Below the pieces are notes generated by a model, which ran no database searches, had not been told where the DNA came from, and saw nothing but the letters and a program-made list of their open reading frames with translations. A stretch of DNA of 40,870 nt from Actinomycetota bacterium (GTDB lineage Bacteria; Actinomycetota; Actinomycetes; Streptosporangiales; Streptosporangiaceae): positions 1 through 40,870 of the forward strand of contig JAFAYQ010000003.1 of NCBI GenBank assembly GCA_019240215.1, in the 5' to 3' direction. The translations under genes and the position numbers were made by a program. Shown in pieces: positions 33,626 through 40,776 of this stretch (positions are counted from its first letter, which is position 1; each line of letters begins with the position of its first letter).

Positions 33626-36600
33626 ATGCCGGACACGCCTGCCAGCGCGCCAGCATTAACGGACCTGGCGGCCTGCCAGACCCGCGGTGAGTTCGGGCAG
33701 CTGCTCGGCGACCTGCGCGCCACCTCCGGCCTGTCCATCCGCGACGTCAGCGCGGCGACCGGCATCCCGGTGGCGACGGTGGGCGACTACTTCAACGGCC
33801 GCCACCTGCCACCGGTCCGCGACCGCATCCTCGAACGCCTGGTCCGGGCCTGCGGGGTGACCGACGAGACGCTGATCGAGGCCTGGACGGCGGCCCGCAA
33901 CCGGGTCCGGCCGACGCCGGGCCGGCCGCCCGCCAACGTGCCCGCGCCCTACCGCGGGCTGGACTTCTTCCGCACCGAGGACGCGGCCTGGTTCTTCGGC
34001 CGGGCCGCGGTGACCGAGCGGCTGGCGGCCGAGGCCCGGCGGCTCAGGGCCCAGGGCCTGCCGCTGGTGGTGACCGGGCCGTCCGGGGCGGGCAAGTCGT
34101 CGCTGCTGCGGGCCGGGCTGATCCCGGCCCTGGCGCCCGGCACCGCGGTGGTGGTGTTCACCCCGGGCCCGCACCCGGCCCGGGCGCTGGCGGCCGCGCT
34201 GGCTTCTGGTGGGGCTGATGGGTCTGGTGGGGTTGATGAGTCTCACGGGTCCGGGCTGGCGGTGATCGTCGACCAGTTCGAGGAGGTGTTCGCGCCCGGG
34301 GTGGCCGAGGGCGAGCGGGACGAGCTGATCGAGAACCTGTACGCGCTGGCGCAGCCGGGACCGGATGGCCAAGCCGGGGCGCTGGTCGTGCTCGGGCTGC
34401 GGGCCGACTTCTACGGCCGGGCGCTGGCCGACCCGCGGCTGGCCCGGTCGCTGCAGGACGGCCAGGTGGTGGTCGGGCCGATGACGGCCGACGAGCTGCG
34501 GGCCGCCATCGTCGGCCCTGCCCAGGCCGCCCACCTCGACCTCGAGCCTGGCCTGGTCGACCTCATGCTCCGGGACCTGCGGCCGGTCAGCGCCCGCCGC
34601 GGCGCCCACGACCCGGGGGCGCTGCCGCTGCTGTCGCACGCGCTGCTGTCCACCTGGCGGGGACGCCGGTCCGGGCGGCTGACGATCGAGGCCTACCGGG
34701 CCAGCGGCGGCATCACCGACGCGGTCGCCCGGTCGGCCGACGACGCCTACAGCGAGCTGACCGCCAGCCAGCAGCGGGCCGCCCGGCGGCTGTTCCTGCG
34801 GCTGGTGTGGGTGGCCGACGACGGGGCCGACACCCGCCGCCGGGTGCCGCTCGACGACCTGGCGCCGGCCGCCGGGCCGGACCGGGGGGCCGACGATGAC
34901 CTGAGCACGGTGCTCGGCCTGTTCGTGGACCACCGGCTGATCACCAGCGACGAGCAGACGGCCGAGATCACCCACGAGGCGCTGCTGACCGCCTGGCCGC
35001 AGCTGCGCCGCTGGATCGACGAGAGCCGGGAGGAGCTGGTCATCGCCCGCCGGATCGCCGAGTCCGCCCAGCTCTGGCAGGAATCCGGCCGTGACGACGC
35101 CGACCTGCTGCGCGGTGGCCGGCTGGCCATGGCCCGGGGCTGGGCCGGGGAGCCGGAGACCGGCGGCCCGGCCGCGGCGGCCGCCAACGCCGAGCGGCGG
35201 GCCACCCTCAGCGGCACCGAGCGCGCGTTCGTGGACGCCTCGTTCGCCCGGGACCGGGCCGAGCAGGCCGAGCAGCGCCGGAACCGGCGGCTGTTCCGCC
35301 GCCTGACGGCCGCCCTGGCGGTGGTGCTGCTGGTGGTGGCGGCGCTGGCCGGTTACGCGATGCAGCAGCGGTCCGACATCGGCCAGCAGCGCAACCAGGC
35401 CGACTCCCGGCAGGACGCGGCCGAGGCGATGGACCTGCGCAACCAGGACCCGGCCCTGGCCGACCAGCTCAGCCTGGCCGCCTACCGGGCGGCGCCCACC
35501 ACCCAGGCCCGCGGCAGCCTGCTGACCAGCTCAGCCACTCCACTGGCGGCCCGGCTGCTGGGCCCGGCCGACGCGGTCCAGTCGGTGGCGCTCAGCCCCG
35601 ACCACCGGCTGCTGGCGGCGGCCGCCGCCGACGGCACCGTCCGGCTGTGGGACCTCAGCGATCCCGACCACCCGGTCAGCCTGGGCGCCCCGTTCGTCCG
35701 CCAGAGCCAGCCGGTTTACGCGGTCACGTTCAGCCCCGGTGGCCACACGCTGGCGGTGGCGGGCGCCAGCGGCCAGGTCGAGCTGTGGAACGTGGACCGC
35801 CCGGCCCGGCCGGTACAGCTGGGCCCGGCCCTGACCGGCCCGGCCGGCACGATCTACGGGCTGGCGTTCAGCCCGTCCGGGACCACGCTGGCGGCGGGCA
35901 GCGCCGACGGCACCGTCCGGCTGTGGACGATGGGGGCCGCCGGGGCCGCCCCGGCCGCCCCTGGCCACCCGGTCACCTTGCACGTGACCGGCGGCTTCGT
36001 GCAGACGGTGGCGTTCAGCCCGGCCGGCACCGAGCTGGCCGCGGGCACGGCCGGCGGCACGGTGGCGATGTGGGCGCTGCCCGGCCACAACGGGGTGCCG
36101 ACCGCGCTGCCCACGCTGACCGGGCCGCAGGACGTGGTGTTCTCGGTGGCGTTCAGCCCCGACGGCCACACGCTGGCGGCCGGCAGCAAGGACAAGACGG
36201 TGTGGCTGTGGGACGTCGGCAACCGGGCCCACCCGCGGCCGGTGGCCCAGTTCAAGGGGGCCACCAGCTGGATCAACGCGGTCGCGTTCAGCCCCGACGG
36301 GTCGCTGCTGGCCGACGGCAGCAGCGACGGCTCGGCCCAGGTGCTGGACGTCGCCACCGGCGACCCGGTCGCCACCCTGCCCGACCCCGACCCGGTCACC
36401 ACGCTGGCCTGGGACCGGGCCGGGCACCTGGTCACCGGGGCGGCCGACGGCAGCGTCCGGGTCTGGGCCCTGCCCCCGGCCGTGCTGGCGGCCGAAGGAG
36501 TGGTCAACGGGGTCGCGTTCAGCACCGCGCACCCCGACCAGCTGGCGGTGGCCAGCGGCGACCTGCAGCTGTGGGACGCGAGCAGGCACCAGCCGCTCGG

Positions 36601-37510
36601 ACCGGCCGTGACCGTACCCGGTACCAGCCCGGGGGCGGCCGCGTTCAGCCCGTCGGGTGCGGTGCTGGCGGCCGGCTTCCTGGACGGGACGCTGCGGCTG
36701 TACCAGGTGACCGCGGCCGGCCACCTGGTCCTGGCCAGCCCGGTGGAAAAGGCATCGACCGCCGGTTACGTGGAGGACGTGGCCTACTCCCCCAACGGGC
36801 AACTGCTGGCCACCGCCAACGACGACTACACGGTCGGGCTGTGGGACGTGGCCGACCCGGCCCGCCCGCGCAAACTGGCCACCCTGCACGGGTTCGGTTC
36901 CTACGTGTTCTCGGTCGCGTTCAACCGGGCGGGCACGCTGCTGGCCGCCGCCAGCGGCGACAAGACCGTGCGATTGTGGAACATCGCCGACCCGGCCCAC
37001 CCCGCGCCGGTCGGGCCGCCGCTGACCGGGCCGTCCGACACCGCCTACTCGGTGGCGTTCGACCCGGCCAAGCCGGTGCTGGCGGTGGGCAGCGCCGACA
37101 AGATGGTGTGGCTGTGGGACATCGCCGACCCGGCCCACCCCAGACGGCTGGCCGGGCCGCTCAGCGGGCCGGCCAGCTACGTGTACTCGGTCGCGTTCAA
37201 CCCGGCCGGGACGATGCTGGCCGCGGGCAGCACCGACGACACCGTGTGGCTGTGGGACCTGACCGACCCGTCCCAGCCAGAGCCGCTGGCCACGCTGACC
37301 GGGCCGACCGACCACGTGTACACGGTGGCGTTCAGCCCGTCCGGGTCGACGCTGGCGGCGGGCAGCGCCGACGGCAGCGTGCACCTGTGGGACACCACCG
37401 CGGCGGCGGCCGCCCGGGCGGTCTGCAGCATGGGCGGCGACCCCATCGACCGGTCCGAGTGGGCCCGCTACCTGCCCGGCACGCCCTATCAGCCGCCCTG
37501 CGCGGGCTAG
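33626..37510 (+). CDS. HTH - nSTAND1-type NTPase - TM - WD40 repeat protein
   Basis: 1294 residues. An XRE-like HTH at about 21-95 (EFGQLLGDLRATSGLSIRDVSAATG, VATVGDYFNGRHLPP); an nSTAND/NACHT-like P-loop module at about 108-480 with PYRGLDFFRTEDAAWFFGR, Walker A GPSGAGKSS (151-159) and Walker B VIVDQFEEVF (VDQFEE 215-220); a helical region ending in basic RRNRRLFRRL; one membrane helix (about 560-578); then 14 WD40 repeats from about 645 to 1265, enough for two seven-bladed propellers. A short Gly/Ser insert (about 193-210) uses T-ending codons unlike the rest. Such proteins are frequent in actinobacteria and thought to be signal-transduction or conflict ATPases. Start ATG at 33626 with GAGGGGG. 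Confidence 0.93.
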   Translation: MPDTPASAPALTDLAACQTRGEFGQLLGDLRATSGLSIRDVSAATGIPVATVGDYFNGRHLPPVRDRILERLVRACGVTDETLIEAWTAARNRVRPTPGRPPANVPAPYRGLDFFRTEDAAWFFGRAAVTERLAAEARRLRAQGLPLVVTGPSGAGKSSLLRAGLIPALAPGTAVVVFTPGPHPARALAAALASGGADGSGGVDESHGSGLAVIVDQFEEVFAPGVAEGERDELIENLYALAQPGPDGQAGALVVLGLRADFYGRALADPRLARSLQDGQVVVGPMTADELRAAIVGPAQAAHLDLEPGLVDLMLRDLRPVSARRGAHDPGALPLLSHALLSTWRGRRSGRLTIEAYRASGGITDAVARSADDAYSELTASQQRAARRLFLRLVWVADDGADTRRRVPLDDLAPAAGPDRGADDDLSTVLGLFVDHRLITSDEQTAEITHEALLTAWPQLRRWIDESREELVIARRIAESAQLWQESGRDDADLLRGGRLAMARGWAGEPETGGPAAAAANAERRATLSGTERAFVDASFARDRAEQAEQRRNRRLFRRLTAALAVVLLVVAALAGYAMQQRSDIGQQRNQADSRQDAAEAMDLRNQDPALADQLSLAAYRAAPTTQARGSLLTSSATPLAARLLGPADAVQSVALSPDHRLLAAAAADGTVRLWDLSDPDHPVSLGAPFVRQSQPVYAVTFSPGGHTLAVAGASGQVELWNVDRPARPVQLGPALTGPAGTIYGLAFSPSGTTLAAGSADGTVRLWTMGAAGAAPAAPGHPVTLHVTGGFVQTVAFSPAGTELAAGTAGGTVAMWALPGHNGVPTALPTLTGPQDVVFSVAFSPDGHTLAAGSKDKTVWLWDVGNRAHPRPVAQFKGATSWINAVAFSPDGSLLADGSSDGSAQVLDVATGDPVATLPDPDPVTTLAWDRAGHLVTGAADGSVRVWALPPAVLAAEGVVNGVAFSTAHPDQLAVASGDLQLWDASRHQPLGPAVTVPGTSPGAAAFSPSGAVLAAGFLDGTLRLYQVTAAGHLVLASPVEKASTAGYVEDVAYSPNGQLLATANDDYTVGLWDVADPARPRKLATLHGFGSYVFSVAFNRAGTLLAAASGDKTVRLWNIADPAHPAPVGPPLTGPSDTAYSVAFDPAKPVLAVGSADKMVWLWDIADPAHPRRLAGPLSGPASYVYSVAFNPAGTMLAAGSTDDTVWLWDLTDPSQPEPLATLTGPTDHVYTVAFSPSGSTLAAGSADGSVHLWDTTAAAAARAVCSMGGDPIDRSEWARYLPGTPYQPPCAG

Positions 37511-37514
37511 CGGG

Positions 37515-38123
37515 CTAGTTCAGGGCGGCGGGCTTGCGGGCGCTGAAGCGCATGACCGCGCCGCCCAGGGCGGTCCTGGTCTGCAGGTCGGTCAGACCCA
37601 GCTTGTTCAGCGCGGTCCGCAGCTGACCGGGGTGCAGCAGGGTGGTGCCGTTGCGCTCCCCCACCCGCATCAGCCGGGCCGGAGCGGTGTTGAGCACGTC
37701 GTAGCCGACCAGCTTGCCGCCCGGGCGGAGCACCCGGACCGCCTCGACCAGCGCCTTGTCCCACTCGATCACGTGGTGCAGCATCGCGGCCGACAGCACC
37801 AGGTCGAACCGGCTGTCGGGGAACGGCAGCGCCACCGCGTCGGCCCGCTGCACGCTGGCCCGCTTGCCGAAGCCGGACAGCACCTGCTCGGCCATGCCGA
37901 CCCGCTCGGTGTCGGTGTCGGTCGCCACCATCCGGAACCGCGGGTACAAGGTCAGCAGCTGGGCGGTCAGCCCGGCCACGCCCGCGCCGATCTCCAGCCC
38001 CTCCCCCGACGGCTCCACGCCCTGCAGGATCCAGGGCAGGATGAGCCGCCGGGCCGCCAGCCGGTAGGGCAGGCTGGTCAGGGTCGCCTTGGCGCTGGGC
38101 GGCATCTCGGGCTCGGGCACCAT
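37515..38123 (-). CDS. Class I SAM-dependent methyltransferase
   Basis: 202 residues, Methyltransf_11/25 type: motif I GLEIGAGVAGLTAQLL, the acidic motif II region MVATDTDTERVGMAEQVL, motif III-like ADAVALPFPDSRFDLVLSAAMLHHV, and LRPGGKLVGYDVL. Substrate unknown; the UbiE/small-molecule group is the nearest pattern. Start ATG at 38123 is chosen since the family N-terminus begins soon after (MPPSAKATLTSLPYRL); upstream codons would cross the palindrome at 38158. Convergent with the WD40 gene (4-nt gap) and divergent from the clpP pair. Confidence 0.88.
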   Translation of the reverse strand: MVPEPEMPPSAKATLTSLPYRLAARRLILPWILQGVEPSGEGLEIGAGVAGLTAQLLTLYPRFRMVATDTDTERVGMAEQVLSGFGKRASVQRADAVALPFPDSRFDLVLSAAMLHHVIEWDKALVEAVRVLRPGGKLVGYDVLNTAPARLMRVGERNGTTLLHPGQLRTALNKLGLTDLQTRTALGGAVMRFSARKPAALN

Positions 38124-38157: not shown

Positions 38158-38172
38158 TCTGCCCTCGGCAGA
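38158..38172. promoter_or_regulatory. PopR-box-like palindrome upstream of the clpP pair
   Basis: TCTGCC-CTC-GGCAGA is a perfect inverted repeat with 6-bp arms and 3-nt spacer. It fits the Streptomyces PopR site as I remember it (TTCTGCC-N3-GGCAGAA), lacking only the outermost pair. It lies 98 bp before clpP and 35 bp before the methyltransferase gene, so it could serve both. Confidence 0.75.
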
Positions 38173-38238
38173 TTTCTTTGGAGATGGGCGGGAGCCCGGC
38201 CCAAGCTGCTTTTTATTCAGCATCGAAATCCGCTTCCA

Positions 38239-38269: not shown

Positions 38270-38884
38270 ATGCCGGCTGCCACCGCCGATACCCCGCTGG
38301 CCGGGCCGCTCGACGATCAGCTGACCGCGCGGCTGCTGCAGCAGCGCATCATCGTGCTCGGCACCGAGGTCGATGACCGGATCGCCAACCGGCTGTGCGC
38401 CGAGTTGCTGCTGCTGTCGGCCGAGGACCCGCGCAGCGACATCAGCCTGTACATCAACTCGCCGGGCGGCTCGGTCAGCGCCGGGCTGGCCATCTACGAC
38501 ACCATGCGGCTGATCCCCAACGACGTCAGCACGCTGGCCATGGGGCTGGCGGCCAGCATGGGGCAGTTCTTGCTGTGCGCGGGCGCGGCCGGCAAGCGCT
38601 TCAGCCTGCCGCACGCCCAGGTGCTCATGCACCAGGGATCGGCCGGCTTCGGGGGGACCGCGGCCGACATCGAGATCTACGCCAGCCAGCTCGACCGGAC
38701 CGGCCGGACGGTGATGGGGCTGGTCGCCCAGCACACCGGCCAGCCGCTCGAGCGGGTCGAGCAGGACAGCCTGCGGGACCGCTGGTTCGACGCCGAGGAG
38801 GCCCGCGCCTACGGGTTCATCGACCACGTGGTGGAAAGCGTTTCGGACGTGCGGCCGTCGATGGCCGCGCCGGTGGGGGTGTAA
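38270..38884 (+). CDS. clpP: ATP-dependent Clp protease proteolytic subunit (ClpP3-type)
   Basis: Serine peptidase that forms the barrel of Clp proteases with an AAA+ unfoldase. 204 residues with triad S96 (GLAASMGQF), H121 (VLMHQGSAG) and D166 (VEQDSLRD), and the substrate-binding [17 protein letters not shown]. Divergent features are the N-terminus (MPAATADTPLAGPLDDQL) and HQGSAGFGGTAAD in place of the usual HQPxGG. First of two clpP genes 3 nt apart, next to a PopR-like gene, the arrangement of the accessory clpP3-clpP4 operon of Streptomyces. ATG at 38270 with AAGAAAGGGG upstream. Confidence 0.95.
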   Translation: MPAATADTPLAGPLDDQLTARLLQQRIIVLGTEVDDRIANRLCAELLLLSAEDPRSDISLYINSPGGSVSAGLAIYDTMRLIPNDVSTLAMGLAASMGQFLLCAGAAGKRFSLPHAQVLMHQGSAGFGGTAADIEIYASQLDRTGRTVMGLVAQHTGQPLERVEQDSLRDRWFDAEEARAYGFIDHVVESVSDVRPSMAAPVGV

Positions 38885-38887
38885 GGC

Positions 38888-39523
38888 ATGAACGAGAGGC
38901 ACAGCATGGGCCAGTACACGATTCCGACCGTGGTCGAGAAGGCGGCCGGCGTCGAGCGGGCCTACGACATCTACTCGCGGCTGCTGTCCGAGCGGATCAT
39001 CTTCCTCGGCACCGAGATCGACGACGGCGTGGCCAACGTGGTCATGGCCCAGCTGCTGCACCTGGAGTTCGCCAGCCCCGACGTCGACATCAACCTGTAC
39101 ATCAACTCCCCGGGCGGCTCCTACAGCGCGATGACCGCGATCTACGACACCATGCAGTTCATCCGCCCGGACGTGGCCACCACCTGCATGGGCCAGGCCT
39201 CGTCGGCGGCCGCGGTGCTGCTGGCGGCGGGCACCCCGGGCAAGCGCACCGTGCTCCGGCACGCCCGGGTGCTGCTGCACCAGCCGTCGGCCGAGGCCCG
39301 CGGGGCCCTGCCCGACCTGGCCGTGCAAGCCAAGGAGATCGCGCGGATCCGTGACGACATGGAGGAGATCCTGGCCAAGCACACCGGCCATCCGGTCAGC
39401 CAGATCCGGGCCGACACCGACCGGGACCATACGTTCACCGCCCAGGAAGCCGTGGACTACGGGCTGGCCGACGCGGTGATCACGTCACGCAAGCTGGACG
39501 TACCGGAGCTGCTGAGCGCTTAG
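38888..39523 (+). CDS. clpP: ATP-dependent Clp protease proteolytic subunit (ClpP4-type)
   Basis: 211 residues with triad S106 ([11 protein letters not shown]), H131 ([11 protein letters not shown]) and D176 ([10 protein letters not shown]), and canonical [21 protein letters not shown] and [12 protein letters not shown]. Likely forms a hetero-tetradecamer with the upstream ClpP, as paired actinobacterial ClpPs do. The start is ATG 38888 (3 nt after the first clpP); the Met at 38906 (MGQYTIP) has GAGAGG upstream and may be used instead. It overlaps the convergent popR-like gene by 4 nt at the stops. Confidence 0.95.
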
Positions 39524-39972
39524 GCGGCCAAGCGGGCGTTGAGGTCGCGGGGGCGGAGCTGGGGTCCGGGGCTGGTGGCGGCCCGGCGCACGGCGTCGAG
39601 CGGGATCACCACCGGGACCTCGGCTTCGGCCTGCGGCTCGAGGCCCTCGCGGCGGGCGCGTTCGCGGGCCACCCGGTCGGCCAGCAGGCGGCGGGCGCGC
39701 ATCACGGCCAGTTCGCGGCCGATCTCGGACAGCACGTCGGACAGCTCGATCTCAAGGGCGGTGCAGACCGCGGCCAGGACTTCGGAGGAGGCTTCCTTGC
39801 GGCCGCGCTCCAGCTCGGACAGGTACGGCATCGACACCCGGGCCGCCCGGGCCACGTCGGCCAGGGTCCGGCGCTGCTGGTGGCGGGCCCGCCGCAGCGC
39901 CGCGCCGAACAGGTGGCGCAGGAGGGGCTCGGGGCGCCGGTCAGCGGGGCGGATCGGGGTCAGCTTGCCCAT
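39520..39972 (-). CDS. popR: PopR/ClgR-like XRE-family regulator of clp genes
   Basis: 150 residues. HTH at about 17-82: [31 protein letters not shown] and [22 protein letters not shown], the exact flavour of ClgR/PopR. A basic helical region follows, and the protein ends LNARLAA. In Streptomyces, PopR represses or controls clpP3-clpP4 and is itself destroyed by ClpP1/P2 through two C-terminal alanines; the LAA end here fits. ATG at 39972 with GGAGGGA. A TTGACC (40014-40019) and TCGCAT (39990-39995) pair with 18-bp spacing on the minus strand is a promoter candidate. PopR versus ClgR is decided by the neighbouring clpP pair. Confidence 0.88.
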
Positions 39973-40132: not shown

Positions 40133-40387
40133 ATGAGCGCAGTGCCTGCCCGCGATCTCCGTAACCACACCGCCGAGATTCTCCGCCGGGTCGAGGCCGG
40201 CGAGGAGATCGAGGTGTACAAGGACAACCGGCCGGTAGCCAAGATCATCCCGCTGTCCCGGCGGCCTCAGTGGCTGCCCGCGACGGAGATCGCCAGTGAA
40301 TTGGCCCAGCTCGGCCCCGACACCACGGGTCTGGCCGATGAACTGCGGGAAACCCTCACCGACACCACCGACGACCTGCCGTGGTGA
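40133..40387 (+). CDS. vapB: Phd/YefM-type (VapB) antitoxin
   Basis: 84 residues. The N-terminal DNA-binding/dimer domain is SAVPARDLRNHTAEILRRVEAGEEIEVYKDNRPVAKIIPL, followed by a toxin-neutralising tail rich in acidic residues (TTGLADELRETLTDTTDDLPW). It binds and inhibits the PIN toxin encoded directly downstream and, with it, represses the operon. Codon use is slightly less GC-biased than the neighbours. Confidence 0.94.
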   Translation: MSAVPARDLRNHTAEILRRVEAGEEIEVYKDNRPVAKIIPLSRRPQWLPATEIASELAQLGPDTTGLADELRETLTDTTDDLPW

Positions 40388-40776
40388 CCGCGCAGCGCGC
40401 GCTGGCCGACACCTCGATCTTCATCGGGCTGGAGTCCACCCGGTTCGATCCCGCGCGCATCGCGGACTTCGAGTGGGCGGTGTCCACCATCACGCTGGGC
40501 GAACTTCGGCTCGGGGTACTGCAGGCCCGGACGCCGGAGATTGCTTCGCGGCGGCTGACGACTTATCAGCTGGCCCAGCGTCTGGAACCGCTGCCCGTCG
40601 ACGAAACTGTGTCGGAAGCATGGGCCCTGCTCGTCTCCCAGATCCGCACCGCGGGGCGCAAGGCTCCGATCAATGACACCTGGATCGCGGCGACCGCGAT
40701 CGCTCACGATGTGCCGATCATGACCCAGGATGCTGATTACGACGCGATGCCAGGCGTGCAGGTCGTCAAAATCTGA
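40384..40776 (+). CDS. vapC: VapC-type PIN-domain ribonuclease toxin
   Basis: 130 residues. Magnesium-dependent RNase that cleaves specific RNAs (in known cases tRNA or rRNA loops). The four acidic PIN residues are present: D9 (ALADTSIF), E40 (TLGELRLG), D98 (PINDTWIAATA) and D116 (TQDADYD), so it should be active. The GTG start at 40384 overlaps the antitoxin stop in a GTGA; a GTG one codon upstream is also possible. Confidence 0.94.
   Translation: MTAQRALADTSIFIGLESTRFDPARIADFEWAVSTITLGELRLGVLQARTPEIASRRLTTYQLAQRLEPLPVDETVSEAWALLVSQIRTAGRKAPINDTWIAATAIAHDVPIMTQDADYDAMPGVQVVKI

What the first reader, a model, noticed from the sequence alone, without database searches (positions are those of the whole stretch)
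38158..38172. PopR-box-like palindrome in front of a clpP3-clpP4-type operon
The sequence shows a perfect TCTGCC-N3-GGCAGA between a methyltransferase gene and a clpP pair, with a PopR/ClgR-like regulator convergent to that pair. The Streptomyces lividans PopR site I recall is TTCTGCC-N3-GGCAGAA. Finding the right box, the right regulator and the right targets in one place predicts a conserved accessory-protease circuit, here also able to reach the divergent methyltransferase gene.
Basis: partly seen in the sequence, partly recalled or inferred. Interest (0 to 1): 0.72.

Follow-up and report, generated by a model that had tools for sequence, protein, structure and literature searches.

The report
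PopR switch for a backup protease
A short DNA palindrome in front of two spare protease genes in an actinomycete is conserved in front of the same gene pair in dozens of related genomes, and is predicted to be where a regulator called PopR, likely short-lived, would switch that backup protease on when the main one fails.

Summary
TCTGCC-CTC-GGCAGA lies at 38158-38172, 97 bp before a clpP3-type gene, with a PopR-type gene convergent to the clpP pair. It is far beyond chance: all 89 loci with a regulator near the pair carry the box upstream of the first clpP (<=3 mismatches; 62 at <=1, shuffles expect 0.12). The regulator ends in Ala-Ala, as do 84 of 89. This matches the Streptomyces PopR-clpP3P4 circuit in print, so the window is a new member, with a one-box promoter variant: box, TTGG, weak -10-like hexamer at fixed spacing in its clade.

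Methyltransferase control is not supported: the gene is present in 2 of 104 loci, at different spacing.

Unexpected: elsewhere the same box sits about 51 bp before an NAD-epimerase-fold gene, in 26 of 28 popR genomes of the main table (27 of 34 with remoter homologues) and 0 of 19 with only a ClgR-like regulator, where a ClgR-like dyad often stands instead. PopR and ClgR boxes fit one 15-bp frame and differ by a TC/CT swap per half. That gene was not found in the window's own (incomplete) genome. Binding and activation are inferred, untested.

The parts
38158..38172 (.). PopR-type box TCTGCC-CTC-GGCAGA (operator)
   Evidence: exact palindrome; upstream of the first clpP in 89 of 89 regulator-linked loci at <=3 mismatches
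38178..38181 (+). TTGG, -35-like element
   Evidence: TTGG exactly at +20 from the box in 18 of 20 aligned loci; its role as -35 is inferred
38202..38207 (+). CAAGCT, weak -10-like hexamer, 18 bp after the -35-like hexamer
   Evidence: A at +45 in 18 of 20 and T at +49 in 18 of 20 aligned loci; inferred, not seen by the consensus scan
38270..38884 (+). clpP3-type gene (204 aa)
   Evidence: Pfam CLP_protease 231.8 bits
38888..39523 (+). clpP4-type gene (211 aa)
   Evidence: Pfam CLP_protease 247.6 bits; orthologues
39520..39972 (-). popR-type regulator (150 aa), convergent; its stop overlaps the clpP4 stop
   Evidence: HTH_31; ClgR model 96.3 bits, below its cut-off of 170; groups outside the ClgR-like branch
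39523..39528 (-). codons of the C-terminal Ala-Ala, predicted Clp degradation signal
   Evidence: AA end in 84 of 89 linked regulators
37515..38123 (-). divergent methyltransferase, likely from ATG at 38123; neighbour, not shown to be a target
   Evidence: Methyltransf_11; present in 2 of 104 loci

Best explanation
The palindrome at 38158-38172 is a conserved sequence upstream of a clpP3-clpP4-type operon and most likely its operator, where the convergent PopR-type regulator is predicted to bind and would recruit RNA polymerase when the housekeeping ClpP1P2 protease stops degrading it. Shown by sequence: the box, its conservation, the gene order, the Ala-Ala end of the regulator, and in the same genome a second clpP pair lying between trigger factor and clpX. 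Inferred from Streptomyces work: that PopR is a ClpXP1P2 substrate and an activator of clpP3P4. In this clade one dyad plus a neighbouring TTGG element appears to replace the two abutting dyads of Streptomyces.
For: Box in 89 of 89 linked loci: 35 exact, 62 at <=1, 83 at <=2 mismatches, against shuffle expectations of 0.01, 0.12 and 2.21. Four box positions are invariant in 89 of 89. Of 15 clpP pairs without a regulator hit in range, 8 have no box, the own housekeeping pair among them. C-terminal AA in 84 of 89. TTGG and a -10-like hexamer at fixed spacing behind the box in 20 aligned loci. The Streptomyces site printed in PMC9775585 is found in G093 and in named Streptomyces loci. Own genome holds the second clpP pair and clpX. 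PopR is degraded by ClpX with ClpP1P2, and clpP3P4 is silent while that works, in PMC9765437 (passages).
Against: No binding, transcript or degradation data for this organism. The ClgR model scores the regulator below its cut-off (96.3 against 170 bits) and the scan returned no PopR model. 7 of the 15 loci without a regulator hit in range still carry the box; two of these end at a contig edge and in one (L216) a regulator lies about 2.6 kb off, just outside my cut. The -35 and -10 elements are weak and the consensus scan finds no promoter, while it lists the box itself as a terminator-like hairpin. The assembly is 67% complete, and no second regulator of ClgR grade was found in it.
Confidence: 0.86

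Rival explanations
1. The box is read by ClgR, or by ClgR and PopR together, rather than by PopR alone.
For: PopR and ClgR boxes can be written in one 15-bp frame; of 58 second boxes in tandem promoters 13 end in GGCGAA, a ClgR-like half. The proteins are paralogues.
Against: The window box has no ClgR-like half. At the epimerase promoter the PopR-type box is absent in all 19 ClgR-only genomes. The residue before YLSE in the HTH is G in 14 of 14 ClgR-like proteins and P or Q in 87 of 89 PopR-type ones.
Confidence: 0.08
2. The hairpin is an intrinsic transcription terminator.
For: The scan lists 38158-38172 followed by TTTCTTT as terminator-like.
Against: No + strand gene ends just before it: the neighbour upstream is transcribed the other way. 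Base identity, not only pairing, is conserved, and the T-rich tail is not kept in orthologous loci such as the Streptomyces ones. Boxes repeat at exactly 15 bp in 54 of 89 loci.
Confidence: 0.02
3. PopR works here as a repressor, or the box serves the divergent methyltransferase as well.
For: The box lies 34 bp from the likely methyltransferase start.
Against: In the 20 aligned loci the box stands upstream of the -35-like element, not on it or on the -10. The methyltransferase is in 2 of 104 loci with different spacing. S. lividans PopR is described as an activator (PMC9765437).
Confidence: 0.06

Closest known systems
PopR-clpP3clpP4 circuit of Streptomyces lividans (original papers not held; known through passages of PMC9765437, PMC12607617, PMC9775585)
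   Same: Box core, clpP3-clpP4 target, ClgR-paralogue regulator; C-terminal Ala-Ala as in Streptomyces orthologues
   Different: One dyad with a TTGTCTTGG-like element (TTTCTTTGG in the window) instead of two abutting dyads; clpP4-type subunit keeps His131, which is Gly in L046 and L047, 2 of 15 aligned rows
ClgR regulator of clpP1P2 in actinobacteria (solved: 5woq, 3f51)
   Same: HTH fold and sequence relationship, dyad operator of the same frame
   Different: Different half-site (GTTCGC-5N-GCG printed in PMC9775585), different helix residue before YLSE, separate branch of the tree

Membership tests
PopR-clpP3P4 circuit | Box TCTGCC-N3-GGCAGA upstream of clpP3 | tested here: met
PopR-clpP3P4 circuit | Two abutting boxes as in the S. 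lividans site | tested here: not met
   single box in the window; next best match 51 bp off with 4 mismatches. Architecture varies among linked loci (54 of 89 have a second box at 15 bp), so I treat it as a variant feature, not a defining one
PopR-clpP3P4 circuit | Second, non-housekeeping clpP pair in a genome that also has a housekeeping pair with clpX | tested here: met
PopR-clpP3P4 circuit | ClgR-paralogue regulator distinct from ClgR | tested here: met
   outside the ClgR-like branch (100/97) and with P before YLSE
PopR-clpP3P4 circuit | C-terminal Ala-Ala on the regulator | tested here: met
   ends NARLAA; 84 of 89 linked regulators end AA
PopR-clpP3P4 circuit | Regulator binds the box and activates clpP3P4 | not testable with these tools
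   needs gel shift and expression assays
PopR-clpP3P4 circuit | Regulator degraded by ClpP1P2 | not testable with these tools
   needs a degradation assay
ClgR | Score over the NCBIfam ClgR cut-off | tested here: inconclusive
   96.3 bits against 170, but pgsA-linked ClgR-like proteins also score 118.6 and 124.5 and no control genome passes
ClgR | Place in the pgsA-cinA-clgR neighbourhood (recalled as typical; seen in L264) | tested here: not met
   the gene lies beside the clpP pair

The most novel reading that the evidence does not exclude
PopR is a Clp-failure alarm with a small regulon captured from ClgR. Its operator is the ClgR operator with TC and CT swapped in each half, matched by a G to P/Q change in the HTH. 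In Streptomyces-like and other actinomycete genomes it commands a second gene, an NAD-epimerase-fold enzyme, from a box about 51 bp before the start; where popR is missing, that promoter often carries a ClgR-like dyad instead. Some genomes keep popR with its Ala-Ala end without clpP3P4, so the alarm outlives the backup protease.
Probability: 0.55. Interest if true: 0.68.

Novelty: new member of a known kind. Interest (0 to 1): 0.5.

Why it matters
The backup-Clp switch described in print for Streptomyces is spread over many actinomycete genomes with box, regulator and Ala-Ala end kept together. That bears on ADEP antibiotics, which target ClpP1 and not ClpP3P4 (PMC12607617, passages). The epimerase promoter offers a second, testable PopR target and a case of two paralogous regulators apparently exchanging a promoter by two base changes per half-site.

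Tried and rejected
Regulon scan with TCTGCYNNNRGCAGAT in 42 genomes with a clpP3P4-type locus (regulator hit adjacent in 39): 30 places (32 hits) away from the clpP3 promoter against 38 hits of the reversed control pattern, so no general excess. All 30 were fetched. Recurrent groups that looked like targets were coding coincidences: ICPWQT (5 of 6 rows read; the sixth, L238, was displayed on one strand only), HICPRQN (5 of 5) and CRVCLRQM (2 of 2). The own genome's second exact site is one of them. Only the pair L242 and L245 (epimerase) held up.

Against a tiny regulon: without the T flank, six genomes of the window's family give 19 sites against 7 control hits. Six are clpP3 promoters, one the epimerase, three the coding coincidences above; nine I did not explain.

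popR autoregulation: 12 of 88 popR genes examined have a box (<=1 mismatch) upstream; the window's is not among them.

A ClgR box before the own housekeeping clpP1: best 3 mismatches, not convincing.

Tree row other_L038 lost its HTH by my trimming and is ignored.

Epimerase rows outside the 51-locus table: G132 and G115 (7 mismatches) and G013 (2), all popR-bearing, not counted as boxed; G060's second copy (no box); G469 (locus near a contig end); G283 (fragment, popR status unknown). Fetched later and scanned over a wider range, 30-200 bp: G036 boxed (1 mismatch), G017 and G160 not (popR-bearing), G347 not (popR not searched), second copies in G004 and G069 not, G283 not. Sorting by popR rather than clpP3P4 was done after seeing exceptions, but the popR search covered all 26 genomes lacking clpP3P4.

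Full report
1. Observation. The perfect dyad TCTGCC-CTC-GGCAGA is at 38158-38172. The form TCTGCYNNNRGCAGA occurs once in the window and in none of 100 dinucleotide shuffles. The exact form occurs twice in the 4.37-Mb assembly; the other copy is coding (peptide ICPWQT). Around the box are a divergent methyltransferase (likely ATG at 38123), a clpP3-type gene (38270-38884), a clpP4-type gene (38888-39523) and a convergent XRE regulator (39520-39972) whose stop overlaps the clpP4 stop.

2. Conservation. Loci came from relatives that have the regulator near a clpP pair, from best matches of the clpP4 alignment in 394 genomes of the class (about 80 of its places were fetched) and from named records (the 8 best and three others were used of 80). 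The box was not used to choose them. Of 104 usable loci, 89 have a regulator hit near the pair. All 89 have the box within 300 bp upstream of the first clpP at <=3 mismatches: 35 exact, 62 at <=1, 83 at <=2. Shuffles of the same stretches give 0.01, 0.12, 2.21, and 19.34 for <=3, so the six loci at 3 mismatches are weak taken singly. Of the 15 loci without such a hit, 8 have no box (4-5 mismatches), the own housekeeping pair among them. Seven have one; two of these end at a contig edge and in one (L216) a regulator lies about 2.6 kb off. Named loci with a box include six Streptomyces, a Sphaerisporangium and a Nocardiopsis.

3. Operator architecture. In 54 of 89 loci a second box (<=3 mismatches) lies exactly 15 bp from the first; no other offset has more than 2. 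In most of the named Streptomyces loci the pair follows TCTGCC-N3-GGCGAA-TCTGCC-N3-GGCAGA, the site printed in the review PMC9775585 (passages). The window belongs to a group with mostly one box. In 20 loci chosen by first-clpP identity of 76% or more and aligned on the box, TTGG stands exactly at +20 in 18 of 20, and at +44 to +49 there is a hexamer with A second (18 of 20) and T last (18 of 20). In the window these are TTGG at 38178-38181 and CAAGCT at 38202-38207. I read this as box, weak -35, 18-bp spacer and weak -10, as expected of an activator-dependent promoter. That is inference: the consensus scan finds no promoter here and lists the box as terminator-like.

4. Regulator. The nearest solved structures are ClgR 5woq and 3f51. 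In a tree of 104 rows 14 ClgR-like proteins form one branch (100/97) and all 89 linked regulators lie outside it; one row was spoilt by my trimming. Two of the 14 lie next to pgsA, one of them also next to a cinA-type gene. Ala-Ala ends 84 of 89 linked regulators. In Streptomyces, PopR is degraded by ClpX or, more slowly, ClpC2 with ClpP1P2, and ClpP3P4 appears when that fails (PMC9765437, PMC12607617, passages). PMC9775585 (passages) names two C-terminal alanines as the likely signal of ClpP1P2 substrates, with ClgR and Lon as the mutated examples; that this was shown for PopR itself is recalled. The own genome has its second clpP pair between trigger factor and clpX.

5. Specificity. TCTGCY-N3-RGCAGA and a ClgR box written in the same frame, TTCGCY-N3-RGCGAA, differ by TC against CT in each half. 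The residue before YLSE in the HTH is G in 14 of 14 ClgR-like proteins and P (67) or Q (20) in 87 of 89 PopR-type ones. That this residue reads those bases is my inference.

6. Other targets. In 42 genomes, places off the clpP3 promoter (30 places, 32 hits) do not exceed the reversed-pattern control (38 hits), and three recurrent groups are coding coincidences. One is not: a gene for an NAD-epimerase-fold protein (Pfam PF01370). Twelve of the 20 are the clpP3 and epimerase promoters, and G130, G362 and G184 have no other site. Six genomes of the window's family gave 19 sites against 7 control hits, nine of them unexplained.

In a table of 51 epimerase loci, the PopR-type box (<=1 mismatch, 45-75 bp upstream) is in 24 of 25 genomes with a clpP3P4 orthologue and 4 of 26 without. 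A popR search of all 26 found clear popR genes without clpP3P4 in three (G377, G243, G113) and weak second hits in four (G479, G454, G485, G004). Sorted by popR: 26 of 28 with popR, 0 of 19 with only a ClgR-like hit, 2 of 4 ambiguous. Fisher p for 26/28 against 0/19 is 3e-11, or 9e-11 without the two genomes that drew attention to the gene. Six remoter homologues in popR genomes bring it to 27 of 34 (G036 boxed; G017, G160, G132, G115, G013 not). The background rate is about 0.00016 per 31-position stretch. A ClgR-type dyad (<=2 mismatches) lies in the same stretch in 11 of the 19 and in 0 of the 28 (counted), against about 1% of other stretches in these loci (21 of 1989). No count is corrected for relatedness. 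The three popR genes without clpP3P4 end in Ala-Ala, and two of those genomes keep the epimerase box. Neither the window's genome nor G001 has this epimerase at E <= 1e-80, so for the window clpP3P4 is the only supported target.

7. Methyltransferase. It is in 2 of 104 loci, the window and G001; two 33% hits (L170, L171) lie beyond the regulator and are other genes. Spacing from box to start differs (34 against about 110 bp).

8. Print. Listings for PopR with clpP3 and Streptomyces (11 papers), PopR with ClgR (8), ClgR with regulon and epimerase (4), PopR with epimerase and Streptomyces (0) and clpP3 with Nocardiopsis (0) showed no account of the epimerase gene as a PopR target; I read passages of six papers only. 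The original PopR paper and the ClgR paper were not held, so this is a limited negative.

9. Verdict. It belongs to a known circuit; the window adds a one-box promoter variant. The larger gain lies outside the window: a second likely PopR gene, and a promoter that seems to have changed hands between ClgR and PopR.

Noticed in passing
L269, L279, L293 and other epimerase loci: PopR-type box about 51 bp upstream of an NAD-epimerase-fold gene in 26 of 28 popR genomes and 0 of 19 ClgR-only genomes of the table.
   Followed up: yes
L326, L327, L328 (G377, G113, G243): popR-type genes with Ala-Ala end in genomes without a clpP4 orthologue at the thresholds used.
   Followed up: partly
alignment A1, columns of window clpP4 residues 106 and 131: The His column is Gly in 2 of 15 rows (L046, L047) and the Ser column is Glu in 1 (L027), so some ClpP4-type subunits look inactive; the window's keeps both.
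   Followed up: partly
L169, L184, L192, L194 and eight others: A box (<=1 mismatch) upstream of popR itself in 12 of 88 loci, suggesting autoregulation in some genera; the window is not among them.
   Followed up: partly
G441, G022, G060, G054: Nine sites of TCTGCYNNNRGCAGA in the window's family that are neither clpP3, epimerase nor known coding coincidences.
   Followed up: no
window 40133-40387 and 40381-40776: Phd/YefM-type antitoxin and PIN-domain toxin pair behind popR.
   Followed up: no
window 33626-37510: 1294-aa protein with an nSTAND1 NTPase domain and WD40 repeats.
   Followed up: no
L034, L039, L040, L042, L050, L264: ClgR-like proteins of these genomes end in MVPV, MVGV or MAGV instead of AA, while the PopR type keeps AA.
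   Followed up: no
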